From: Clavibacter sp. A6099
GTDB taxonomy: Bacteria; Actinomycetota; Actinomycetes; Actinomycetales; Microbacteriaceae
Length of the DNA: 64,000 bases
Assembly (NCBI RefSeq): GCF_021919125.1
Contig: NZ_CP083440.1
Coordinates: 1-64,000 of the forward strand
Reading direction: 5' to 3'
Of this stretch, positions 1 to 64,000 are shown one piece after another (position 1 is the first letter of the stretch; every line of letters starts with the position of its first letter). The notes under the pieces were generated by a model. That model worked only from the letters and a program-made list of their open reading frames with translations. It did no database searches and was not told the DNA's origin. The position numbers and the translations under genes were made by a program.

Positions 1-2417
1 TGAAGACCCCGATCCTGGAGGCGCTTCGAGGCATGGTCGCGGGGGAGACTGACGCCGTTCGCCGCCGCCAGTGCCTCCAACTCAGCAGAGACATCCACAA
101 CGATCGGCCTCTGACCCTTCGCGCATCGCTGCCTTCCGACATCAGTCAATTCGACCTCTTGGTCAGCTTCGCTGCTTCCTGGGTAACGACTTCACGAGTC
201 ACAGACCACCTCGACGCCATCGCCAATGACACAGCGCTCGATGAGTTCGCCGTCCTCCGATCGTGGGCGCAGGACGCCGTCGTGCGGCAGAGCATCGCAC
301 TCTCGTCCCCCAGCATGATCACGGCGCTCGACAGGGTGCTGGCGGCGGAGAAGCCTGCGGGGAGGACGACCAAGTCCCTGCCCGGCCTCATCACGTACTT
401 CGCCCGATCCACCACCAAGGTCAGTCCATTCAGCCGCCACACCGCGGTGCACGTCGATGTTGATGGGGTGGACGCGATACGCGGTCCTCGTGCAGCGGAC
501 ATCCACGTGACGCGGTCAGAGACGACGATCTCCCGGCTGCTCTACCGCAGGCTTTTCCGTCTCCTCGCAGCCGACGCGACGTACCGCGAGCACCTGGGAT
601 GGAAACGCTCCGACCTGATCCATGCTCCTGCTCACGGGGGGATAAAGATCAGCCGACGACGATGGCTCGATGGGGCCGGCCTCCTCGACACCTTCTCGGA
701 GGACGTGGTGACGCTGCCCGACGCCCCGATGTGGCGCCTACTACTCGGGCTCCTTCCCGGAGGATCGTCGACGAGTCTGGACTCGGTGCGCCGCACCCTC
801 GCAGCGGCTGTGGATGACCCGGCTGCCGCTGAGCAGCTCACCGAGAAGCTTGTCGGGCTCGGAGTTCTGGTTCCCGTCATGCCGGTGTCCGAACAGTCCG
901 ACACCTTCTCCTCGCGATGGGAAGACCTGCTCGCGGCGCTTCCGCCGTCCGCGGAGGCGCTCCGCCGTCTGCACGCGGAGACGGACTCGACGCGCATCCA
1001 GCTCCGCACGCTTGACGGCACGACGCGTGCGGCCATGATCCTGAAGCTCCGGGCCGCGTGGCGCGCTGCGCTCACCACGGTCGACGATGGCGACGCCATC
1101 CTCGACGACCCGCGCGCTGGGGTGGCGAATGTGTTCCTCGAGGATTCCTTCACCGACGCCGGCCCGACCCCCGTCCCTGACCGCACCACCTGGAGCGAAG
1201 ACTTCTCCGCGCTCTTCCCCCTCCTCGACGCCACGGACGACCAGCGTCTGATCGAAGCCGCCGTGAGGTCTTGCTTCCTCGCTGCCTACGGTGAGGACGG
1301 CGTGTGCGTCGACCTGCACGAGTTCGCCGACCGTCTTCGCGAGGAGCTCCCGGCTCGCATGACGGATGCCGTCACCGCGTCACCCTCGGCCGAGCTGCCG
1401 CTCCTGCGCGCCGCGGGTGCAACGCTCATCCGTCGTCTCATCGCCGAGGATGAGGATCAGGTCGAGATCACGGTGCAGGATCTGCGCGACCTGCGAGAGC
1501 TCGCCGAGGGCGCACCCCGGATGCGCACCGCCTCCTACGCCGTCTTCGGGCAGGCGACGGGTGAGACCCTCGTGCTCAACCACGTCTACGGGGGAGAGGC
1601 CAAGTTCGTCGGACGTTTCCTGGCAGACAGCGACCCCGAGACCATCGACGCCGCGCGTCGGTACGCGCGCTCCTTCCACGCCCCGAGCACCCCGGCGTTG
1701 CAGATCCGACCCACCCTCGGCTTCAATGCCAACCTCGCACCCGCCCTCCTCGATGGAGACATCGCCATCCCCGACGAGCCCGCCGACGGCGACGCCGCAC
1801 CCATCTCGTCACTGCATCTGACCCTCACGTCACGCGGGCTCGCCCTCATCGATGCCCAGAGAGGGAACGAAGTGGACGTCGCATACCTGGGCTTCCTCGT
1901 TCCCCACGCGCTACCGTCGATGGAGCTCCTCCTCGCCTCATACCGCAGTACCCCGCACGTGTCCTGGGCTGAATCCACGTCCGTCCTCGTCGACGGGATC
2001 CGACGCGACCCCAGGGTCATCGTCCGGACGCCTCGTGTTGTCTTCCGTTCGATCGTCCTCTTGCGACGCCGCTGGGCTCTGCGAGCCGACCAGCTGCTCT
2101 CGATGCTGGATGGTTCGGCCGCGGCCTTCCGTGCTGTCAACGTGTGGCGCGTAGAGCACGCGATCCCCGAGATGGTCTACGTCCATCGACTGCGCGCACC
2201 GTCGCACGATCCCTTCTCCTCCGATCGCGCCCCCAAGCCGGCGTTCGTCGACTTCATGAGTCGGCTCGGCGTCCAACATCTGGCCAAGCGACTGGTGGAC
2301 CACGGGGATGAGCTCCTCCTCGAGGAGTTCCTGCCTGAGCCCTCTTCCGACACCCATCACCACGCGACCGAGATCTACTTCGAGGTCAACGACATCAAGG
2401 ACCAGGACCACCGATGA
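1..2417 (+). CDS. Thiopeptide LanB-type dehydratase, glutamylation domain (5' end at or beyond window edge)
   Basis: Lantibiotic dehydratase N-terminal (glutamylation) family, the LazB/TclK type that uses Glu-tRNA to activate Ser/Thr of a precursor peptide before elimination. Numbering from the ATG at 33, the family's early conserved block is at about 121-140 (TYFARSTTKVSPFSRHTAVH, where most relatives have TPFG); length (~795-805 aa) fits a stand-alone glutamylation subunit with no elimination domain. The frame is open from 33 back to the window edge, and the window begins TGAAGACC: if the preceding base is A, the gene starts ATGA (MKTP...) coupled to an upstream stop, as all its downstream neighbours are. 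It overlaps the next gene by ATGA at 2414. Seen: domain and overlap. Inferred: substrate is the precursor at 62672. Confidence 0.85.
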   Translation, partial: KTPILEALRGMVAGETDAVRRRQCLQLSRDIHNDRPLTLRASLPSDISQFDLLVSFAASWVTTSRVTDHLDAIANDTALDEFAVLRSWAQDAVVRQSIALSSPSMITALDRVLAAEKPAGRTTKSLPGLITYFARSTTKVSPFSRHTAVHVDVDGVDAIRGPRAADIHVTRSETTISRLLYRRLFRLLAADATYREHLGWKRSDLIHAPAHGGIKISRRRWLDGAGLLDTFSEDVVTLPDAPMWRLLLGLLPGGSSTSLDSVRRTLAAAVDDPAAAEQLTEKLVGLGVLVPVMPVSEQSDTFSSRWEDLLAALPPSAEALRRLHAETDSTRIQLRTLDGTTRAAMILKLRAAWRAALTTVDDGDAILDDPRAGVANVFLEDSFTDAGPTPVPDRTTWSEDFSALFPLLDATDDQRLIEAAVRSCFLAAYGEDGVCVDLHEFADRLREELPARMTDAVTASPSAELPLLRAAGATLIRRLIAEDEDQVEITVQDLRDLRELAEGAPRMRTASYAVFGQATGETLVLNHVYGGEAKFVGRFLADSDPETIDAARRYARSFHAPSTPALQIRPTLGFNANLAPALLDGDIAIPDEPADGDAAPISSLHLTLTSRGLALIDAQRGNEVDVAYLGFLVPHALPSMELLLASYRSTPHVSWAESTSVLVDGIRRDPRVIVRTPRVVFRSIVLLRRRWALRADQLLSMLDGSAAAFRAVNVWRVEHAIPEMVYVHRLRAPSHDPFSSDRAPKPAFVDFMSRLGVQHLAKRLVDHGDELLLEEFLPEPSSDTHHHATEIYFEVNDIKDQDHR

Positions 2418-3550
2418 TCTCGACACTCCGCATCGACCATCATGCGCCGCACAAGGCCGACCTCATCCGCGTCCTCATCACTGCCCTCGCGCCGCTCTCC
2501 GATCAGCCAGACGTACGCACCTGGTGGCTGCATCGGCACTGGAAGCTGGGACCCCATCTGCTCGTGCTGGTGGAGACAGTATCTGACCCGCTGCCGGATA
2601 CGGTTTCCCTGATCGAGCGGGCTGCGGGCGCCGCCGTCCGCGCATGCCCTAGCGACAACCCCGTCGATCCCGAGCAGTGGATCTTGACGTCCGTCGCCCT
2701 CGGTCGCGCCGAGCTCGTCGAGGGCCCATATGGACCAGTGCGCCCCGACAACACCATCAGCTGGGTGACGGATGGTGCGCTCGACACGTTCATCCGCGAT
2801 GAAGCGGCCCTCGAGGTCAAGGGTCGCCTCACCGCCGCCGGCCTGCCCGTGCTCGCGGACGCCTCCGCCCGTGGTGAAGACGCGCGCACATCGGCGCTCA
2901 TCGGGATGATGACGCTCGCCACCGCCTACCCCGACGGAGGCATGACGCGCGGATACCTGGCCTTCCTCTCGCACTGGAAGGAGTTCCTCCACTGGCTTCC
3001 CGCAGGCGCCGACATCGAGTCCTCTTGGGCTGCGGCGTACGACGAGCAAAAGGACTTCCTCGACGCTCTTCTCCGGGATGTCGCCACGCCCGACGACCGG
3101 CCCGGAGCAGAGGCGCAGCAGTGGCGTGGCTGGGCCCAGGAGGCCCACGATCCCGCCCGTGATCTGGCCCGGCGCGGCCTCGTCCTGCCGTATCCACACG
3201 CCGATCGGTTCGACCTCGCGAAGGGGATGGGCGACGACCTCGGACGCCGTTGGGGAGGGGACGACGACCGGAGCTACAGCGACTTCCACGTGCAGTTCCG
3301 TAAGCTCGACTTCACGCGCCTGGGTGACTCCGACGCGTTCAGCGCCTACCGCTTCACCATCAACTGCTTCTTCGATCTCGTCACGCTCATGGATGTGAGC
3401 CCGCTCGAGCGGTACGCGCTCGCGTACTTCTTGACGCGGGCGGTAGAGGATCAGACCGAGACGACGTGGTCGGACATCGTCGCCAGGGGAGTGGCCCGAC
3501 AGGCCCTCGATCCGGACGCGCATCCGACGCTGCCCTGGCGCGGCCGATGA
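2414..3550 (+). CDS. SpaB_C-like thiopeptide enzyme, probable pyridine synthase (LazC-like)
   Basis: 378-aa protein of the 'thiopeptide-type bacteriocin biosynthesis' (SpaB C-terminal-like) family. The diagnostic N-terminal block is at about 36-52 (RTWWLHRHWKLGPHLLVLVE, cf. family pattern W..R.W..GPHLR). Two such domains occur in this cluster: here alone, and at 8095 fused to a dehydrogenase. In the lactazole pathway the stand-alone one (LazC) performs the [4+2] cycloaddition forming the central pyridine and releasing the leader, while the fused one (LazF) eliminates glutamate; gene order here (B-C-D-E-x-F) is the same, so I assign this one to cyclisation. The two roles could be swapped. Translationally coupled by ATGA overlaps at both ends. 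Confidence 0.75.
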   Translation: MISTLRIDHHAPHKADLIRVLITALAPLSDQPDVRTWWLHRHWKLGPHLLVLVETVSDPLPDTVSLIERAAGAAVRACPSDNPVDPEQWILTSVALGRAELVEGPYGPVRPDNTISWVTDGALDTFIRDEAALEVKGRLTAAGLPVLADASARGEDARTSALIGMMTLATAYPDGGMTRGYLAFLSHWKEFLHWLPAGADIESSWAAAYDEQKDFLDALLRDVATPDDRPGAEAQQWRGWAQEAHDPARDLARRGLVLPYPHADRFDLAKGMGDDLGRRWGGDDDRSYSDFHVQFRKLDFTRLGDSDAFSAYRFTINCFFDLVTLMDVSPLERYALAYFLTRAVEDQTETTWSDIVARGVARQALDPDAHPTLPWRGR

Positions 3551-5190
3551 GCGCCGTCATGCCGGACGAAGTGGTCAGGCTCCGCCCCTCCATCATCATT
3601 GCGGAGAAGGAAGAAGCGATCGCGTTCTCCTCGTGGAACGCCACTGTGCATCTTCGAGGGTCCAATTCCGTTGCCCTCTGGCATGCGATCCGACCCAGCC
3701 TGGCAGGGGGCATCAGCGAGGAGGCGCTCGTCGAAGCCCTGCCTGAGGGGAACGTGCGTCACGTCGTGGCGGACCTTCTCTCGGACCTCGGGACGAACAA
3801 CCTCCTCGAGGTCGTCGATGAGAAAGCAGCCGGCACGAGGCTCTCGGAGGACATCAAGCGCTGGATCGGGTCGAAGACCGTCCGTGCCGCCGCCGTGACG
3901 CGTCGACTGTCCGTGATGGCACTGACGGTGTCCGGCACCGATGCTCACCTCCTGCGACTCGTCCAAGCTCGCCTCGAAGATGCAGGGCTCTCGGCGTCCC
4001 TGGAGCTGCGGCCGGACAGCAGGGTCGATGCAGAGATACACATCGACTCCGGCACGCTGTCTGGGTCCGTCGTCGTCATCCAGACCCTCGGCACCACCCT
4101 CGTCGGTCCCGTACCCGCAGGACCTTCAATTACAGCCATGCTGCTCTTGGCGGACCGTCATCGCTCAGACGGCGTGCGCCTGACGGGACTCGACGATGTC
4201 ACGACCGAGCTCGCCGCATCGCAGGCCCTTCTAGCCATCCTCTCCACCGCGGTGACAGCTGAGGAGGCCGCTCACTCGTCATCGGCGCCACCTGCGAGCT
4301 CGAGCGTGGCCGACACGCCTCAGGTCTACGTGACCGACGCGTTCGCCGTCTCCGAGCTCCATCCGCTCACGATCGCCTGGCCCCATTCGCTGATCAGTGC
4401 AATTGGCTCGGTCTCCGTCATGCAGGGCGACCAGCTCAGCAGCTCGGAGACGCACGGCGAGACGCCGCCCGCAGCCGAGATGGAGTCGCTCAAGGCCCTC
4501 TGGGACCGGCACGGTGGCGCCGTCAGCGAGCCGCACCCGCGGGACCTCCCCCAGATCCCATACGCCCTCGCGACCTGCCGAGATCTGGACACGGACTATG
4601 TCGCCCTGGGCATCGGCAGCCAGCTTGACGTCGCTAGATGGGACGCCCTCCGTCACGCACTGCGAGCGTCTATCCCACCCGAGTGGAGCGTCCGCCTCGG
4701 ACTAGGTAGGAGCGGAGCGGAGGCTCGGGACGACGCAATCCTGCAGTGGATCTCTTCGCCGTCGGCCCGCGTTCGGTGGGACGCCTCGACCGAGATCACC
4801 ACTGACCGGTCTCCGGCGGCTCGCCGCGCCTGGTCCACGGCCACCCTGCGTCTCGGGGCGACAGTCGGCGTGCACGCGGAGCTCACCCGCGTTGGCTCCC
4901 TGTCCCTTCACCGTGTTCGCGCGACCACCGGCGTACACCGCGTGGACGTGTATTCCCAGGATCAGGACCAGGCCCTCACCGGAGCGCTCGTCCGCCTCGG
5001 CGGGCTCCTGCAGGCGAATGCGACCGCCGGCCAGGGGCCCGGGCAGGGCGGCTCGGGTGGCCAGGGGAGCGCGGCACCAGCGATCAGCGTCGGGCCGGGT
5101 CTATCCGATTGGGCCAAGGCCATGGGTCTGCGCGTGCGCGATGTGGATAGCGGGCAGGCGGCGCTCCACGCGGCGGTGGTCGAGTCATGA
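3547..5190 (+). CDS. E1-like/Ocin-ThiF-like leader-binding partner of the cyclodehydratase (LazD-like)
   Basis: 547-aa protein. The start at 3547 is chosen because its ATG overlaps the previous stop (ATGA), like every junction in the operon; an upstream in-frame start at 3466 would overlap the previous gene by 85 bases. The first ~90 residues (around WNATVHLRGSNSVALWHAI and the VRHVVADLLSDL helix) look like the PqqD-like RiPP recognition element that binds the precursor leader. The middle is a divergent E1/ThiF-like scaffold without an obvious ATP site. A Gly/Gln-rich linker lies near residues 480-495. In thiopeptide and LAP pathways this subunit presents the precursor to YcaO. The family call rests on the N-terminal look and position between LazC-like and YcaO genes. 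Confidence 0.7.
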   Translation: MSAVMPDEVVRLRPSIIIAEKEEAIAFSSWNATVHLRGSNSVALWHAIRPSLAGGISEEALVEALPEGNVRHVVADLLSDLGTNNLLEVVDEKAAGTRLSEDIKRWIGSKTVRAAAVTRRLSVMALTVSGTDAHLLRLVQARLEDAGLSASLELRPDSRVDAEIHIDSGTLSGSVVVIQTLGTTLVGPVPAGPSITAMLLLADRHRSDGVRLTGLDDVTTELAASQALLAILSTAVTAEEAAHSSSAPPASSSVADTPQVYVTDAFAVSELHPLTIAWPHSLISAIGSVSVMQGDQLSSSETHGETPPAAEMESLKALWDRHGGAVSEPHPRDLPQIPYALATCRDLDTDYVALGIGSQLDVARWDALRHALRASIPPEWSVRLGLGRSGAEARDDAILQWISSPSARVRWDASTEITTDRSPAARRAWSTATLRLGATVGVHAELTRVGSLSLHRVRATTGVHRVDVYSQDQDQALTGALVRLGGLLQANATAGQGPGQGGSGGQGSAAPAISVGPGLSDWAKAMGLRVRDVDSGQAALHAAVVES

Positions 5191-7028
5191 CATTGACGAC
5201 GCCCGGGGTCGACAGCTGGCCCACAGATCTCACTTCCTTCCGGTCGATCCACCTGCCAACGAGCTCAGGCATCGGGCAGATCGCATTGCTGGACACCACG
5301 CTCGTCATCGGCCCCGTAGCCAGTGGCCGCGGTGCCTCCCGAACAGCGTGCGGTAAATGCGTCACGCTCTGGCACGCAGACCGGAACAACGCCTTTGATT
5401 CCCACTTCGCGGAGTCCCCCGGTGTACCCGACCACCTCCGCGCAGTAGCTGATGGGCTCACCGCGTTGTTGGTCGCCGAACCCGAGCGCTTCGTCGCACG
5501 AACGGCGTGCCTGGACATCACCAACGGCACCCTCACCTGGCACCATGTGCACTCGCACCCGCTCTGCTCGAACTGCGGCTGGGTGTCGGACGACCTCCCT
5601 CGGTCCCTCCCGGACGAGCTCGACCGCACGGAGACCGTGGACGCCCGCTCGTGGCGTGTCCGGTCCTTCGACCGCCAAGTGCTCCGCGATGCCCTCGTGG
5701 ACTATAAGTGGGGTCCCCTCGTTCATCTCTCCCGCGATGAGAAGTCGCCGATGGCCTTGTCCACGAGCGAGGCGCTGCACCCGGGAGGGCATCGCGCCGA
5801 GGGAGGCTACGGACGATCCCTCGACTTCCAGACCAGCGAGGTGCCGGCGGTCCTGGAAGGACTGGAGCGAACGATGAGCGCGGCGCCCCTCGGCAGGCGA
5901 GTGAAGGTCCACGGCTCGTTCGCAGAGCTCCGCGACGTAGCCGTCGACCCAGCGGATCTCGGACTCCACGACCCGCGACGGCAAGCCCATGAGGCATTCG
6001 CGCTCGACCGCTACGCACCCGACCTCTCGACCACCTGGGTGTGGGCCTGGTCAACCCTTCAGCGACGGGAAGTGCTCATACCCGCTCACGTCGCCTACTG
6101 GGACGCTCACGACGGACAACCTCGGTTCCTCTACGAGTCCTCAAACGGATGCGCGCTCGGCGGGTCGCTGCAGGAAGCTATCCTCTACGGCCTCTTCGAG
6201 GTCATCGAGCGCGACGCCTTCCTCCTCGCCTGGCACTCACGCACGCAGCTCCGTGAGGTCGACTGGCAGCACCTCCCGATTGCCGCGCACATCTCCGACC
6301 GGCTTCACGACCAGGACATGCGTCTGCGCGTCTTCGACATGACCTCGGAACTCGCCGTCCCGGCATCAATGGCCGTCATCGACGCCAGTCATGACGCCGT
6401 CGAGCGGGGAGATGCTCGTGCCCTCAATCTCGCCGCAGGCGCCCATCCGGTCCGTGACCGGTCCATCGCGACCGCCATCGAAGAAGCCGCGACGAATGCC
6501 CTCATGTTCCCGCATTGGGCGAAGACAGCCCCGGGCAAGTACGACGCGGCGCAGTTCCTGCCCATGGTGAACGACTTCACCAGGGTGAGGAACCTCGACG
6601 ACCACACCGGACTTTTCGGCCTGAACGAGGCGCGTCCCCTCTGGTCGTTCCTGGACGGGCACGGAATCACGAAGGACACCCGACCGCACGAACTCGAGAA
6701 CCCGGATCCGTCACGTGACGTGCGGGCCACGCTCCGCCTCCCGACCGAGCGCTTCGTCCTCGGGGAATACCTGGACGAGCTCATCGCCGTGTTCCACGCC
6801 AACGGCCTCGACGTCATCGTCGTCGACCAGACCAGCCCCGCATATGCGAGCTCCGTCGGAGTCCATACCGTCAAGGTCATCGTGCCCGGGACCGCCCCCA
6901 TGACCTTCGGCCACCTCAACGACCGGACGAGAGGTAACGCTCGTGTGGCTCGCGGAGCGACGCTCCTTCAATCGTCTCTCGGTAGCGCCGGCGTGCTGTC
7001 TGACAACATCCCGCACCCGTTCCCATGA
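5187..7028 (+). CDS. YcaO-domain azoline cyclodehydratase (LazE-like)
   Basis: 613-aa YcaO protein, which uses ATP to cyclise Cys (and possibly Ser/Thr) of the precursor to thiazolines/oxazolines. Visible signatures: NGCALGGSLQEAI (320-332) followed by FEVIERDA (337-344), whose glutamates belong to the YcaO nucleotide/Mg site; SIATAIEEAATN further on; and the very C-terminus ...NIPHPFP, matching the PxPxP tail typical of azoline-forming YcaOs. The N-terminal 140 residues carry two Cys pairs, CGKC (55-58) and CSNC (127-130), a probable zinc tetrathiolate of the kind found in the partner C/E1-like subunit, so part of that partner seems to have moved onto this chain. ATGA/TGACC-type coupling at both ends places it in the same transcript. 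Confidence 0.9.
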   Translation: MTLTTPGVDSWPTDLTSFRSIHLPTSSGIGQIALLDTTLVIGPVASGRGASRTACGKCVTLWHADRNNAFDSHFAESPGVPDHLRAVADGLTALLVAEPERFVARTACLDITNGTLTWHHVHSHPLCSNCGWVSDDLPRSLPDELDRTETVDARSWRVRSFDRQVLRDALVDYKWGPLVHLSRDEKSPMALSTSEALHPGGHRAEGGYGRSLDFQTSEVPAVLEGLERTMSAAPLGRRVKVHGSFAELRDVAVDPADLGLHDPRRQAHEAFALDRYAPDLSTTWVWAWSTLQRREVLIPAHVAYWDAHDGQPRFLYESSNGCALGGSLQEAILYGLFEVIERDAFLLAWHSRTQLREVDWQHLPIAAHISDRLHDQDMRLRVFDMTSELAVPASMAVIDASHDAVERGDARALNLAAGAHPVRDRSIATAIEEAATNALMFPHWAKTAPGKYDAAQFLPMVNDFTRVRNLDDHTGLFGLNEARPLWSFLDGHGITKDTRPHELENPDPSRDVRATLRLPTERFVLGEYLDELIAVFHANGLDVIVVDQTSPAYASSVGVHTVKVIVPGTAPMTFGHLNDRTRGNARVARGATLLQSSLGSAGVLSDNIPHPFP

Positions 7029-8098
7029 CCGGAGTCGGTAGCGATGGTCGCGAACTCGAAGGCTTCTGGGACCAGTCATGGGGCAAGTCCGTTCGCCCCG
7101 TCGGCACAATGCTGACGGACCGTCGACGTGACGAGGCTCCCGAATACCGTGCCGCCTCTCCCGACACGAGCGTCCTCAAGGCCATCCAGAATGCTCGACC
7201 AGCGGACGTGGTCCGAATCGGGGCACCTGTGGAACGCGCCGCGGCGTGCCTCCACGAGGTCACCCGTATCCGCCGGCTCACCCCCGCGGAGGCGTACGTC
7301 GGCCACCGCTCGTACCCGTCCGCGCGCGGAATCGGCGCGACCACGGCGACGCTGCTTGAAGACGGATACCCAGGGCCGTCGGTCGTCTTGCATCCTGTGC
7401 CGGCAAGAGTCCCGTCCGCATATGGAAGCCTCCGAGAGCCGCTCGCACTCTTGGAGATGGGACACCAGGCGGCCAATCTGCAGCTCGTGGGAACCATCGC
7501 GGACCTCTCGCCGGCTCTGCTTCCGCCGGTTGAGGACTCATCGAAGCGCCCGCTGACACCGGCCCACGTGCGCTTCCGGGGACCTCGCCCGAGCACGGCC
7601 GGGCAGCAGCTCCACGAAGCGGCCACCGGTACCGAACTTCCCGTGTCCGTACTCTTCGATCGCCGCACCAGCAACCCCACGCCGGCTGCTCATATCGACC
7701 ACGCTGACCTCAGTGCCGAGGCGATGGAACTCCGAGGCGTCGGGCAGCTCGCGCTCCTTGCTCTAGCGGAGCAGTGGCCGGTAGCAGCAGTCTCCTCCTT
7801 GCGGCTCGCGCGGAGGCCAAGATCGGAGGGCACTTCCCTCGACCTCATCTGGGTGGCTGACGTGCGTACGTGGGTGAGTCGCGGGATGTCCGTCAACACG
7901 CTCTACATCGCCGTCGGGTGGTTGTCGCAGTGGCTCTGCATGGCCGCGGCATCCCGAGACCTGGCCATCCGGCCGATGAAGGCGTTCGACGAGTCCGATC
8001 TCTCCTCGCTGCTCCATCTGGGGTCTGACGAGCAACCCCTCTACGTGCTCCGCGTCGAGCGCCGCGTGAGCTCCCCTCTCGAGAGGATCCTGAGATGA
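7025..8098 (+). CDS. Nitroreductase-fold-like TOMM accessory protein
   Basis: 357 aa, starting with an ATGA overlap with the YcaO gene and itself overlapping the next start (ATGA at 8095). The C-terminal half (for example VGWLSQWLCMAAASRDLAIR, then the PLYVLRVERRV strand) resembles the second half of SagB/nitroreductase-type flavin dehydrogenases that oxidise azolines to azoles. The usual N-terminal R-x-S-x-R phosphate/FMN-binding block is not evident, so it may be a divergent second dehydrogenase, a non-catalytic partner, or a tailoring enzyme. It has no counterpart in the minimal six-gene lactazole set as I know it, and is the extra gene between the LazE- and LazF-like genes. Family call moderate, function unknown. 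Confidence 0.55.
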   Translation: MTGVGSDGRELEGFWDQSWGKSVRPVGTMLTDRRRDEAPEYRAASPDTSVLKAIQNARPADVVRIGAPVERAAACLHEVTRIRRLTPAEAYVGHRSYPSARGIGATTATLLEDGYPGPSVVLHPVPARVPSAYGSLREPLALLEMGHQAANLQLVGTIADLSPALLPPVEDSSKRPLTPAHVRFRGPRPSTAGQQLHEAATGTELPVSVLFDRRTSNPTPAAHIDHADLSAEAMELRGVGQLALLALAEQWPVAAVSSLRLARRPRSEGTSLDLIWVADVRTWVSRGMSVNTLYIAVGWLSQWLCMAAASRDLAIRPMKAFDESDLSSLLHLGSDEQPLYVLRVERRVSSPLERILR

Positions 8099-9798
8099 CC
8101 GCATCCCCCCGCTGGCAGACGCTGGAGATCTACTTGCACCGAACCCGCGAGGAGGTCGACCGGGTCCTCGTCGACGTAGTCCAGCCGCTGCTCGATGAGC
8201 TCAGAGACGCGGGGGCGATCGACGAGTGGTACTTCCTCCGCTACTGGCACGACGGTCCACATCTCCGGGTCCGCGTGCTGAACGCCTTGCTGGTGGAGGG
8301 CATCCGTGCGACCCTGTCCTCTCGCATCACCCCAGGCGACACCGCATCCCCGGCCTTCTCGCCCGCGGACTTCTACGCCGGGTTCGCTCCGTCCCCTGGA
8401 GAACGGCGGTGGAGCGCGGACGGCGAGATCCGCATCGCCGGCTACGAGCCAGAGGTCGAGCGGTATGGGGGAGCCGCAGCGATCCGCGACGCCGAACGGC
8501 TGTTCATTGAGAGCGGTCGAGTGGCGCTCTCCGTCATCGCTGCGACGGAGGATCGGGGCAAGCGATTCGCGGTCGCCGCGGATTTGCTCTTCCTCACCGT
8601 CACAGCCGTGGGTTGGACGACGCTCGAGACCGTCAGGCAAGCTCGCGGTTACTTCTCGTCGTGGGATTACTCCGATGAGACACTGCCCGTACCCTCGGAG
8701 CCGCTACGTCAAGCCGCCGAGAGGGCGTTCACGGCCTCACCAGACCGGTGGATCGGTCGATCTCGGGTCCTCGGACCCTACGCGACCGCCGACGGCGAAG
8801 ACACGTACAGCCAGTGGTCCGGCGCCGTTCGGCGCTACTCGCGCGCTCTACATGAGCTATCAGGTGAGTCCATGACCAACTCCCACTCGCGCATCATCTG
8901 GTCACAGGTGCACATGCTGCACAACAGGCTCGGCCTCACGATCGACGAGGAGAGGATCTTGGCGTGGCTCGTCTCCATGGCTGCGTTGGCGTCTGCCGGT
9001 GGAACCACGAGTCACGATGAAGCGCTCGGCCGTCCCGATCGTCGCTACCTCGAGTGGAGCAAGTACACACGCAACGACGCTCCGGCCTCGCTTGAAGCCC
9101 TTCCGCCCGTTAAGCGGGAAGAGGGGCCGTCACCGGACCGCGCCGCGCCGTTCCCCCCGCCGCGACCTCTCCTGGCGACTATGCAACGCGCGCTGGATAA
9201 CCGACGTAGCGTCCGCGATGGCTTCGTGTCCGGGCTCACTGCACAGGATGTCGGAGACCTGCTCCTCGGCGCCGCCGGTCAGAAGCCGGAGGCCACGCGT
9301 CCGAGCCGGCCGTACCCGAGCCCGGGTGGTGCCTTCGCGACCGAGCTCTACTTCCATGTCACGGGCGTCGTCGGACTCGATGACGGTCTCCATCACTTCG
9401 ATCCTGTGTCGCGCGGGCACCGTCCCGTCGCCGGGAATCTGCCGCTCGACGCGCTCAATGGGATGAGCCCCTACCTCGGAGAATCTCAAGACGGCGGCGA
9501 GCTGGACCTCAGCGGTGCTCAAGTCGTCCTCTTCCTGGTCACGCGGCTCGAAGCCCTCGAGCCGAAGTACGGTCCGCGGTCGTTGCGACTGGCTCTCCTT
9601 GAAGCAGGACACCTTTCGCAGGCACTATGCCTCGTCGCATCGGCGCTCGCGCTCGGGTCCCTGGTGGTCTCCGGCTATGCCGATGACGCCCTGAACGCTG
9701 CCCTCCATCTCGACGGCGTCGACAGCTTCGTCTCCGAGATGCTCGTCATCGGGAAGCGCGATCCGCTGAGAGGAGAACACAGCATCCGCCCTGATTGA
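8095..9798 (+). CDS. Fused SpaB_C-like elimination domain and SagB-type azoline dehydrogenase (LazF-like)
   Basis: 567-aa two-domain protein. Residues ~1-310 are a second 'thiopeptide-type biosynthesis' domain, with the WYFLRYWHDGPHLRVRV block at 45-61. Residues ~360-560 are a SagB-type FMN nitroreductase: RRSVRDGF near the domain start, RPYPSPGGAFATELYFH, the GLHHFDP strand, and LLEAGHLSQALCLVASALAL. The arrangement equals LazF, where the first domain eliminates glutamate from glutamylated Ser and the second oxidises azolines to azoles. Last gene of the coupled operon; 44 bases separate it from the regulator gene. The reverse assignment (cyclisation here, elimination at 2414) cannot be excluded from sequence alone. 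Confidence 0.85.
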   Translation: MTASPRWQTLEIYLHRTREEVDRVLVDVVQPLLDELRDAGAIDEWYFLRYWHDGPHLRVRVLNALLVEGIRATLSSRITPGDTASPAFSPADFYAGFAPSPGERRWSADGEIRIAGYEPEVERYGGAAAIRDAERLFIESGRVALSVIAATEDRGKRFAVAADLLFLTVTAVGWTTLETVRQARGYFSSWDYSDETLPVPSEPLRQAAERAFTASPDRWIGRSRVLGPYATADGEDTYSQWSGAVRRYSRALHELSGESMTNSHSRIIWSQVHMLHNRLGLTIDEERILAWLVSMAALASAGGTTSHDEALGRPDRRYLEWSKYTRNDAPASLEALPPVKREEGPSPDRAAPFPPPRPLLATMQRALDNRRSVRDGFVSGLTAQDVGDLLLGAAGQKPEATRPSRPYPSPGGAFATELYFHVTGVVGLDDGLHHFDPVSRGHRPVAGNLPLDALNGMSPYLGESQDGGELDLSGAQVVLFLVTRLEALEPKYGPRSLRLALLEAGHLSQALCLVASALALGSLVVSGYADDALNAALHLDGVDSFVSEMLVIGKRDPLRGEHSIRPD

Positions 9799-62027: not shown

Positions 62028-62671
62028 CGCCGGCGCGGCATAAGTCCTAGCCATGGGAGTGTCAGACGAAGGCGTCTAGGTCTTGGGCCCTTGGGTGACA
62101 ACAGCGGCTCCGCGAAGCGGAGATGCCCACGTTCCAGGACGTTCATGAGCGCACGCACGGGCGAGACTTTTTTGCCGCCCCAGCGTGACCCGGAGGCAGC
62201 ATATGGAACGTCGAGGTGCATCTGACGTGCTGGCAACGGCGCTCCCATGCGTCAGCGTCCTTCCTCGACCGGCCCGATGGGGTGGAATCTAGTGGGCTGG
62301 TTTCGGGGCGTGAAGCGGGTGGTCGGTGGTGCCGGTCGCGCGCTCGCTTCTGCCCGCGGTGGAGAGCAGGTACTCCGCTGGCGCCTCCTCGGTAGGCGCC
62401 TGTTGAGGGCTGTGTGCGCTAGCCGCGTCCCTGGGTTAGCGTCCGAATCCAGAAGGTCGAGGCTCGTGTGAAGTGGAAGCACGGGGCAAGCCCCCCGCGG
62501 TGCACCCGAGCCGACAGTGGGCCGCAAGATACCTCCCAGGCGCTTGCGAGTCAAGGAGTTCGGAAAAGAAAGTCGACGTTCCGAAACCACTGGACGAGCG
62601 TCCAGTACGGTGTTACTTTCGCCTCACCCGACACTCTGGCGGGTACACAGCAACGAACATGGGACACCCGC
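62028..62671. other. Gene-poor region and promoter of the thiopeptide precursor
   Basis: About 640 bases between the partition module and the precursor gene. A 74-aa frame at 62247 has no family or ribosome site. The region ends in the inverted repeats at 62559-62606 described separately. Confidence 0.5.
62559..62606. promoter_or_regulatory. Two inverted repeats upstream of the precursor gene
   Basis: TTCGGAA (62559) with TTCCGAA (62579), and ACTGGACG-AG-CGTCCAGT (62589-62606), 8-bp perfect arms. They lie 66-113 bases before the precursor ATG and look like regulator-binding sites; the TetR-like protein at 9843 is the candidate partner. Confidence 0.7.
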
Positions 62672-62845
62672 ATGGAAAAGACAATGAGCATGAAGATCAG
62701 CCTTCCGGACCTCGATTTCGACAGCGTCGAGATCATGTCCGTCCGTGAGGCCGTGGCGGTGCCGGAGACCGGCGCCACCAGCGGCTCGAGCAGCAGCAAC
62801 TCGAGCTCTTGCTGCGGCAGCAGCTCGTGCTGCTCCTCGTCCTGA
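62672..62845 (+). CDS. Thiopeptide precursor peptide with Ser/Cys-only-type core
   Basis: 57 aa (other in-frame starts at 62684 and 62690). The leader LPDLDFDSVEIMSVREAVAV then PETGA mirrors, position for position, the LazA leader as I remember it (LQDLDLSELTVTSLRDTVAL, PENGA). Leader cleavage is expected at or one residue past the Ala of PETGA, giving a core T-S-G then SSSSNSSSCCGSSSCCSSS (39-57): 14 Ser and 4 Cys of 21 residues after the Thr. Cys would become thiazoles; two Ser would be dehydrated and joined in the pyridine. It is the only RiPP-like precursor seen, in the right place upstream of the exporter genes. A hairpin follows. Confidence 0.92.
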   Translation: MEKTMSMKISLPDLDFDSVEIMSVREAVAVPETGATSGSSSSNSSSCCGSSSCCSSS

Positions 62846-62873: not shown

Positions 62874-62912
62874 ACCGAGGGTGGGCCGGCGACAACGTCG
62901 GCCCCCCTCGGT
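62874..62912 (+). terminator. Attenuating hairpin between precursor and transporter genes
   Basis: ACCGAGGG.GGGC...CGAC pairs with GTCG-GCCC-CCCTCGGT around loop AAC, 29 bases after the precursor stop. This usually makes the precursor message more abundant than that of downstream genes. Confidence 0.7.
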
Positions 62913-62928
62913 CATTGAAGGGGATGGA

Positions 62929-63822
62929 ATGTCGGCAGTGGTTGCAGACGCGGTCTGCAAGAGTTACAAGGATGTCGTTGCCGTCAAGGATGTCTCCCTA
63001 CGGGTCGAAGCGGGCGAGCTCGCCGCTGTCCTTGGCCCTAATGGGGCGGGCAAGACGACAACCATCGAGATGTTCGAAGGGCATCGTGCTCCTACGTCAG
63101 GATCGATCCGTGTCCTCGGTCTCGACCCCACGAACCGAGGGGAATTCCGTCAGCTTCGCCGACGCATCGGCGTTGCTCTGCAGAGGACCGGATATGAGCC
63201 GACTCTGACCGTTCAGGAGATTGCCGACCGTCAGGCGAGCTACTACCCCTCGCGCTTCGCTCTACCTCCCATCATCGAAGCCCTCGGGCTCGGCGCGAAG
63301 CTCACATCGCGGATCGGCACGCTGTCCGAGGGCACGCGACGCCGCGCCGACATCTTCTTCGCGCTCGTCGGTGCTCCCGACGTCCTCTTCCTTGATGAGC
63401 CCACCGCGGGCCTCGACCCAATTGCGCGCCGCGATGTGCAGGGCCTGCTCACAAGCCTCCGGCAGTCGGGGATGGCGATCATCATGACATCTCACCACCT
63501 CAATGAGGTCCATGAGATCGCGGACACCGTGCACGTCCTTCGCGACGGAACGATCATGATGTCGGGGCCTCCCGGCACGCTGATCCGCGACTCCGGGATC
63601 AAGACCATCGTCGCGTTCGACCGCCCCGCCGCCGCGCTGACTCTTCCCGAGGGCGCCGTCATCTCCGGGGATCGAGTGACGTTCGACGTCGACGACCCCT
63701 CCGAATTCCTCCGCAGGCTCCATGACTGGAGCGGAACCACAGGCATCGACATGACCAATCTGACCATCACCCAGCCGACGCTCGACGAAGCGTACGTCCG
63801 CCTCGTGGGGGGCGGACAGTGA
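62929..63822 (+). CDS. ABC transporter ATP-binding protein of the thiopeptide cluster
   Basis: 297 aa from ATG 62929 (AAGGGGATGGA before it). Walker A LGPNGAGKTTTIEM (~38-51), Q-loop in GVALQRTGYEP, Walker B VLFLDEPTAGLDPIA (~150), switch His in MTSHHLNEV. The signature is TLSEGTRRRADI rather than LSGGQ, a variant of the type seen in ABC-2 drug/bacteriocin exporters. C-terminal ~80 residues have the usual DrrA-like tail. GTG of the permease overlaps its stop. Role: export and self-protection (inferred). Confidence 0.9.
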   Translation: MSAVVADAVCKSYKDVVAVKDVSLRVEAGELAAVLGPNGAGKTTTIEMFEGHRAPTSGSIRVLGLDPTNRGEFRQLRRRIGVALQRTGYEPTLTVQEIADRQASYYPSRFALPPIIEALGLGAKLTSRIGTLSEGTRRRADIFFALVGAPDVLFLDEPTAGLDPIARRDVQGLLTSLRQSGMAIIMTSHHLNEVHEIADTVHVLRDGTIMMSGPPGTLIRDSGIKTIVAFDRPAAALTLPEGAVISGDRVTFDVDDPSEFLRRLHDWSGTTGIDMTNLTITQPTLDEAYVRLVGGGQ

Positions 63823-64000
63823 GCGCCGTCGAGCTGACGGTCGTCCATGCGCCGGTTTCCGTCGCCCGCACGGCGTGGCTCCATGTGCGGTCAGAGGTCC
63901 GTGCCTTCTGGTCCACGCCCGTCACCGTCGGATTCATCGTATTGATGCCGGTAGTCCTCTATCTCGTCTTCGGCATCGCATTCAAGAGCAACTCGGACAC
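63819..64000 (+). CDS. ABC-2-type transporter permease (3' end outside window)
   Basis: 60 codons visible. The GTG at 63819 overlaps the ATPase stop (GTGA). The protein begins VSAVELTVVHAPVSVARTA, then WLHVRSEVRAFWSTPVTVG and the first membrane helix FIVLMPVVLYLVFGIAF, the classic opening of an ABC-2 permease. Partner of the ATPase at 62929. If the element is circular, this gene would run to the ATG that overlaps position 1-2 of the window. Confidence 0.85.
   Translation, partial: MSAVELTVVHAPVSVARTAWLHVRSEVRAFWSTPVTVGFIVLMPVVLYLVFGIAFKSNSD

What the first reader, a model, noticed from the sequence alone, without database searches (positions are those of the whole stretch)
62672..62845. Lactazole-type leader joined to a Ser/Cys-homopolymeric core
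The leader is nearly superimposable on LazA's leader (from memory), yet the core (…SSSSNSSSCCGSSSCCSSS) consists almost only of Ser and Cys with two Cys-Cys pairs. Known thiopeptides usually keep several non-modifiable residues and alternating Cys. A product with adjacent thiazole pairs and up to 14 Ser, of which an unknown number are dehydrated, would be a new thiopeptide scaffold.
Basis: partly seen in the sequence, partly recalled or inferred. Interest (0 to 1): 0.9.

Follow-up and report, generated by a model that had tools for sequence, protein, structure and literature searches.

The report
Plasmid thiopeptide cluster, serine-rich precursor
A bacterial plasmid carries what looks like a complete gene set for a ring-shaped peptide of the thiopeptide class, made from a precursor that is almost only serine and cysteine; relatives with the same precursor suggest that its ring could be unusually large.

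Summary
62672-62845 (+) is one ORF of 57 aa, above the curated cut-offs of NF033400, TIGR03892 and PF19409. The window is most of a 64,853-base contig. Across its ends lies a full, translationally coupled thiopeptide operon: precursor, ABC exporter, LanB-type glutamylation enzyme, pyridine synthase, LazD-like protein, YcaO, an extra nitroreductase-like protein, an elimination/dehydrogenase fusion and a TetR regulator. Its synthase falls beside those of lactazole-type clusters. The core is not unique: Arthrobacter terricola has it without residue change over the shared 20, and Nocardiopsis loci have a close variant; 34 precursors from 19 loci share S10-C11-C12-G13-S14-S15-S16-C17-C18-S19. The product is unknown. 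The lactazole ring-closing motif Ser-Ser-Ser-Cys occurs twice in the window core, but in the 32 Nocardiopsis-group cores only S14-C17 lies far enough from Ser1. I therefore favour closure Ser1-Ser16, a 44-membered macrocycle, larger than the 26-35 reported for known thiopeptides in 2020. A 26-membered Ser1-Ser10 ring is the main rival. New variant of a known kind.

The parts
62672..62845 (+). Thiopeptide precursor (LazA-like), 57 aa; leader to about GAT (inferred), core SGSSSSNSSSCCGSSSCCSSS
62589..62606 (.). Perfect palindrome ACTGGACG-AG-CGTCCAGT upstream of the precursor; candidate operator for the TetR regulator (inferred)
   Evidence: one exact match in the window; function not tested
62874..62912 (+). 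Strong RNA hairpin without U-tract between precursor and ABC genes; a hairpin sits at the same place in Arthrobacter; probably sets the precursor to enzyme ratio (inferred)
   Evidence: z -5.42 here, -4.86 in L049, longer stretch, z -3.92
62917..63822 (+). ABC transporter ATPase (export or self-protection, inferred)
63819..64000 (+). ABC-2 permease, runs on past the window to contig position 64691
1..2417 (+). LazB-like LanB N-domain (tRNA-Glu dependent glutamylation, inferred); 860 aa, begins at contig position 64688, frame intact across the contig ends
2414..3550 (+). LazC-like [4+2] pyridine synthase, 378 aa
   Evidence: NF045556 149.7 bits (below its cut-off of 325); TbtD 5wa3 E 6.8e-30; tree
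3547..5190 (+). LazD-like protein (leader-binding partner of the cyclodehydratase, inferred), 547 aa
   Evidence: no NCBIfam hit, one sub-threshold Pfam hit; profile match to the D proteins of 4 lactazole-type clusters, probability 99.4%, E 2.7e-21
5187..7028 (+). LazE-like YcaO cyclodehydratase with an N-terminal TOMM leader-binding-type domain, 613 aa
   Evidence: (TIGR03604 248.6 bits, TIGR03882 39.5 bits)
7025..8098 (+). Extra, divergent SagB/nitroreductase-like protein, 357 aa; also in the Arthrobacter and Nocardiopsis clusters, no blastp hit in 7 other thiopeptide loci
   Evidence: (19.6 bits, cut-off 78.4)
8095..9798 (+). LazF-like fusion: glutamate-elimination domain (Lant_dehydr_C) plus SagB-type azoline dehydrogenase, 567 aa
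9843..10526 (+). TetR/ScbR-like regulator, 227 aa
   Evidence: (NF041196 124 bits, cut-off 150); no blastp hit in any of the 9 loci

Best explanation
A plasmid-borne operon makes and exports a lactazole-type thiopeptide. Inferred steps: the leader docks on the LazD-like protein and YcaO; all or most of the four Cys and some Ser become azoles, oxidised by the dehydrogenase half of the F protein and perhaps by the extra nitroreductase-like protein; B glutamylates further Ser from Glu-tRNA and the other half of F eliminates glutamate to give Dha; the pyridine synthase joins Dha1 with a second Dha and ejects the leader as an amide (...PETGAT-NH2). The second Dha is most likely Ser16 of the conserved motif G13-S14-S15-S16-C17-C18, which copies the lactazole motif Ser10-Ser11-Ser12-Cys13 and would give a 44-membered ring with a five-residue tail. 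The ABC pair exports it. Shown: genes, order, homology, core conservation. Inferred: all chemistry. Confidence 0.88 for a lactazole-type thiopeptide pathway, about 0.5 for the Ser1-Ser16 ring within it.
For: Precursor models above cut-off. Homologs of LazB-F in the order A-B-C-D-E-F of lactazole-type clusters, six junctions from the permease on being 4-base ATGA overlaps. Pyridine synthase profile matches TbtD over 2-355 of 378 positions. Tree: window with A. terricola 100/99, with Nocardiopsis 100/99, beside the lactazole-type clade within a 98/96 group. 34 of 34 precursors keep S1, S3-S5, S8, S10-C11-C12-G13-S14-S15-S16-C17-C18-S19. In 12 lactazole-type precursors taken by pattern from 6 genomes, 12 hold SSC and 10 SSSC, at varying distance from Ser1. 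In lactazole, Ala at Ser1, Ser10, Ser11 or Ser12 abolishes cyclisation (PMC7210931, passages). In the 32 Nocardiopsis-group cores position 9 is Thr (31) or Pro (1), so an SSC at Ser10 exists only in the window and A. terricola. After the ring Ser lactazole has four more core residues; here five after Ser16, eleven after Ser10.
Against: No product, mass or expression data. S10-C11-C12 is just as invariant as S16-C17-C18, so conservation alone does not pick Ser16, and in the window itself both SSSC motifs are present. Thr before Ser10 could give a methyloxazole and still serve. Nocardiopsis cores have a further SSSC at S3-C6; I set it aside because it would give an 11-membered ring, which Laz enzymes did not form in vitro. 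Lactazole Ser1 follows GA directly; here a Thr intervenes in 34 of 34. NF045556 scores below its equivalog cut-off. Three of the 12 lactazole-type cores have a second SSC nearer to Ser1. One of the 12 (G514) lies on another contig than its genome's synthase, so that pairing is not shown.
Confidence: 0.88

Rival explanations
1. Same thiopeptide pathway but ring closure Ser1-Ser10: a 26-membered ring like thiocillin, with an unusually long, modified tail C11-S21.
For: S10-C11-C12 invariant in 34 of 34; thiocillin, thiostrepton and nosiheptide have 26-membered rings (PMC7210931 passages); window and A. terricola have SSSC there.
Against: 32 of 34 cores have Thr or Pro, not Ser, at position 9, whereas 12 of 12 lactazole-type cores carry SSC; the tail would be 11 residues.
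Confidence: 0.35
2. Linear azole/Dha peptide (goadsporin-like): the core is modified but not macrocyclised.
For: Azole and Dha enzymes alone would give this; goadsporin clusters also have split LanB enzymes (PMC4603692 passages).
Against: An intact pyridine synthase matching TbtD, conserved with the cluster in related loci; goadsporin clusters lack the cycloaddition protein (PMC4603692 passage).
Confidence: 0.06
3. Lanthionine-bearing peptide: Cys add to Dha instead of forming thiazoles.
For: Ser/Cys-rich core, LanB-type enzymes.
Against: None of the 8 proteins scanned matches a LanC-type cyclase at E up to 0.01, while a YcaO and a dehydrogenase are present.
Confidence: 0.02
4. Silent or decaying plasmid cargo that makes nothing.
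For: Found in 1 of 18 genomes of the genus; a regulator could keep it off.
Against: Frames of the operon intact, coupled starts, core unchanged against A. terricola despite synonymous divergence.
Confidence: 0.07

Closest known systems
Lactazole A cluster (laz, Streptomyces lactacystinaeus)
   Different: Sister clade of pyridine synthase; core 18 of 21 Ser/Cys, while lactazole A is described as low in Cys/Ser/Thr; Thr before Ser1; ABC exporter, extra nitroreductase-like protein and TetR regulator; predicted 44- (or 26-) instead of 32-membered ring
Arthrobacter terricola JH1-1 cluster (L049), uncharacterised as far as searched
   Same: Colinear operon, 29-57% protein identity, core identical over 20 residues
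   Different: Core one Ser shorter; no hit to the TetR regulator
Nocardiopsis clusters (18 loci) and one Glycomyces record, uncharacterised as far as searched
   Same: Same order, invariant SCCGSSSCCS core
   Different: Two precursors in most loci; C6, T7, T9 (one P9) and tail ending GSCG
Thiocillin/thiomuracin-type thiopeptides (TclM, TbtD)
   Same: Pyridine synthase homology to TbtD, azoles, Dha
   Different: Their position 2 is Cys; elimination and dehydrogenase functions on separate proteins (both recalled)

Membership tests
Thiopeptide (pyritide-type RiPP) pathway | [4+2] pyridine synthase | tested here: met
   TbtD E 6.8e-30 over 2-355 of 378; NF045556 149.7 bits, under its equivalog cut-off of 325
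Thiopeptide (pyritide-type RiPP) pathway | YcaO cyclodehydratase | tested here: met
Thiopeptide (pyritide-type RiPP) pathway | Split LanB: glutamylation and elimination domains | tested here: met
   PF04738 and PF14028
Thiopeptide (pyritide-type RiPP) pathway | Precursor with recognised leader and Ser/Cys core | tested here: met
Thiopeptide (pyritide-type RiPP) pathway | Product with central pyridine and azoles | not testable with these tools
   Needs mass spectrometry and NMR
Lactazole-like subfamily | Gene set and order A-B-C-D-E-F with fused F | tested here: met
Lactazole-like subfamily | Pyridine synthase inside the lactazole clade | tested here: inconclusive
   beside it (joint group 98/96), not inside; root at the midpoint; LazC itself not in the tree
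Lactazole-like subfamily | SSSC motif needed for ring closure in LazA | tested here: met
   present at two places
Lactazole-like subfamily | 32-membered ring and low Cys/Ser/Thr content (features of lactazole A itself) | tested here: not met
   18 of 21 core residues are Ser/Cys; position 12, the ring Ser of lactazole, is Cys. Hence filed as a sister group that works like lactazole, not as lactazole

The most novel reading that the evidence does not exclude
The operon makes a natural thiopeptide with a 44-membered ring closed between Ser1 and Ser16, lined almost wholly by Ser/Cys-derived azoles and dehydroalanines, with a bis-thiazole (C11-C12) inside the ring and a second at its exit: larger than the natural thiopeptide macrocycles reported in the papers seen, and kept nearly unchanged across Clavibacter-like, Arthrobacter and Nocardiopsis hosts.
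Probability: 0.45. Interest if true: 0.65.

Novelty: new variant of a known kind. Interest (0 to 1): 0.5.

Why it matters
Lactazole-like clusters were said in 2020 to be about half of predicted thiopeptides (251 of 508), with a single characterised member of unknown function (PMC7210931 passages). This is a distinct, conserved sister group with a simple, near-homopolymeric core. It poses a clean question, which of two identical SSSC motifs the synthase uses, and would test whether natural rings exceed 35 members, as lactazole enzymes allow in vitro (up to 62). A core kept across three bacterial families suggests a definite target (inferred).

Tried and rejected
Chance ORF: rejected by three curated models and by the synonymous-only divergence of the core from A. 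terricola. A second precursor in the genome: none by NF033400 at E up to 0.001; two weak blast hits on the chromosome (E 0.285 and 1.28) were not among its matches. Cluster cut off at the window end: rejected, it continues across the contig ends. Other plasmids with the precursor: no match among 72,556 records at E up to 1 (the window's own or very near records may be left out); the YcaO finds 12 records, each under 60% identity. Literature: core strings gave 0 papers; a broad lactazole/thiopeptide search gave 871, 40 listed; Clavibacter with thiopeptide 18 papers, seen as listing, of which I read passages of one, PMC4603692, and no title names such a cluster; lactazole with Nocardiopsis and thiopeptide 0; thiopeptide with 44-membered and macrocycle 0; 'lactazole-like' 5; a further thiopeptide search 4; Clavibacter with plantazolicin 14, 8 listed. 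These cover only the open library; the 2018 thiopeptide mining paper (10.1021/jacs.8b03896) is not held, so the Nocardiopsis clusters may well be listed there. Papers were seen as passages only: PMC7210931, PMC9247985, PMC4603692. Structure prediction of the D protein and of the nitroreductase-like protein was never accepted, so no fold search was run. The promoter scan found no site on the + strand upstream. The palindrome 62589-62606 has no copy with up to 3 mismatches near the TetR gene. Sequence search of the D profile against solved structures found nothing, of the nitroreductase-like profile only weak matches (best E 0.26, a putative nitroreductase), of the LanB-type protein nothing.

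Rows dropped before counts: the tree used 29 of the 46 pyridine synthase sequences (16 Nocardiopsis rows and L036 left out). Of 20 related loci two, L051 and L060, gave no precursor and are not in the 34. The 12 lactazole-type precursors are those that fit a pattern (LPE..A then Ser, at least 3 Ser) in loci chosen from 6 genomes, not the whole.

Full report
What is there. The reported ORF is real: 62672-62845 on the + strand reads through to a 57-aa peptide. It passes the curated cut-offs of NF033400 (57.5 bits, cut-off 30), TIGR03892 (32.4, cut-off 25) and PF19409 (49.6, cut-off 23.5). The whole genome of the window holds one NF033400 match at E up to 0.001.

The surroundings. The window is bases 1-64000 of contig 2 (64,853 bases) of a two-contig, 3.33-Mb genome. 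The window shows only ABC genes after the precursor, because the operon crosses the contig ends. Reading from the contig end into its start, a LanB-type frame of 860 codons runs on without a break (64688 to 2417). The Arthrobacter relative has the same genes uninterrupted on one contig, so the contig is most likely a circular plasmid; no terminal overlap was found to prove it. From the permease on, each gene up to the F fusion starts on the stop of the one before by an ATGA overlap (64688, 2414, 3547, 5187, 7025, 8095), a sign of coupled translation. The plasmid backbone (window 40000-62000) matches Clavibacter plasmids best (26 of 45 records; C. capsici, 86% of the stretch at 85.8% identity), so the host is probably Clavibacter; the species was not determined.

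Relatives. Of 18 genomes of the genus, the window's included, only the window's has the pyridine synthase. Of 394 genomes sampled from the class 21 have a match at E up to 1e-8, and 28 of 394 an NF033400 match at E up to 0.001, 24 of them over the cut-off. A pattern scan of the collection of 84,980 species genomes gave 117 candidate stretches, of which 20 encode a relative: Arthrobacter terricola (56% identity), one record labelled Glycomyces fuscus and 18 Nocardiopsis; more distant relatives would be missed by the patterns. In A. terricola the core is SGSSSSNSSSCCGSSSCCSS, that of the window less the last Ser. Its core codons differ from the window's only synonymously: 13 identical, 8 synonymous, 0 changed over Thr plus 20 residues (counted by eye from the codons printed), against 7 residue changes among the 50 codons compared, which thus lie in the leader. 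The core looks held by selection.

Core anatomy. Numbering from the Ser after GAT, 34 precursors from 19 loci (the window and 18 of the 20 loci; L051 and L060 gave none) share S1, S3, S4, S5, S8, S10, C11, C12, G13, S14, S15, S16, C17, C18 and S19 without exception; position 2 is Gly in 33 and Ala in 1, position 6 Cys in 32 and Ser in 2, position 7 Thr in 32 and Asn in 2, position 9 Thr in 31, Ser in 2 and Pro in 1. A strong hairpin without U-tract follows the precursor in both the window and A. terricola (z -5.42 and -4.86), which may hold the enzyme genes at a lower level than the precursor (inferred).

How it works. The model is lactazole, rebuilt in vitro by others (PMC7210931, passages read): azoles, dehydration by glutamylation and elimination, then LazC joins Dha1 and Dha12 and the leader leaves as an amide. 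There Ser1, Ser10, Ser11 and Ser12 cannot be replaced by Ala, the minimal motif at the second site may be as small as oxazole11-Dha12, the enzymes made rings of 14 to 62 members but not of 11, and known thiopeptides were 26 to 35. In 12 lactazole-type precursors taken by pattern from 6 genomes, 12 carry SSC and 10 SSSC; its distance from Ser1 varies, for rings of 20 to 47 members if the last SSC is used (predictions, not measured; for G514 the precursor lies on another contig than the synthase). In the window core SSSC occurs at S8-C11 and S14-C17. In 32 of the 34 cores of this group the first is broken (TSC or PSC), while the second is present in 34. Those 32 have another SSSC at S3-C6, too near Ser1 by the in vitro limit. 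I therefore prefer Ser16, a 44-membered ring and a five-residue tail, at about 0.5, with Ser10 (26 members) at 0.35. Against: S10-C11-C12 is just as invariant, and Thr9 might be made into a methyloxazole. Ring size does not change the mass, so LC-MS alone cannot tell these apart; MS/MS or Ala exchange can.

Family. A maximum-likelihood tree of 29 pyridine synthases puts the window with A. terricola (100/99), these with Nocardiopsis (100/99), and this group beside the lactazole-type clade, the two together at 98/96 (midpoint root; LazC itself was not in hand, so genomes with LazA-like cores stand for it, the LazA core being recalled and borne out by residue numbers and mass). It works like lactazole; by membership it is a sister group, with an exporter, an additional nitroreductase-like protein and a far more Ser/Cys-rich core. 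The nitroreductase-like gene has blastp hits in A. terricola and in the Nocardiopsis loci that reach so far but in none of the 7 other thiopeptide loci compared (L041, L043-L048).

What is not known. No product, expression or activity is shown. Lactazole A itself has no antibacterial activity and no known role, so an antibiotic function should not be assumed; the ABC pair would fit export or self-protection. The literature searches cover an open library only, and the 2018 mining study was not held; the Nocardiopsis clusters could be in its lists.

Noticed in passing
G000:C1:3056212-3057189 (L006): Second YcaO on the chromosome beside what look like SagB-like and ThiF-like ORFs (read by eye): another azole-peptide cluster. 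Plantazolicin clusters have been noted in Clavibacter (PMC4603692 passage); identity not tested.
   Followed up: partly
62589-62606: Perfect 8-base-arm palindrome upstream of the precursor, candidate TetR operator.
   Followed up: partly
L008, L010 (G007, same genus): Two precursors about 4.3 kb apart of another Ser/Cys-rich thiazolylpeptide type, leader ...LAAELDAFEIDTLEVKDYVDYSEMAF.
   Followed up: no
L041 (G505): Two lactazole-type clusters side by side with four precursors whose last SSC predicts rings of 20, 38, 38 and 47 members.
   Followed up: partly
L055: A record labelled Glycomyces fuscus carries a cluster nested among Nocardiopsis ones: transfer or mislabelled assembly.
   Followed up: no
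L081, L082, L091, L092: Another precursor group with GASSG... poly-Ser cores ending in CC or CSAC, in genomes of four families (f45, f47, f36, f37).
   Followed up: no
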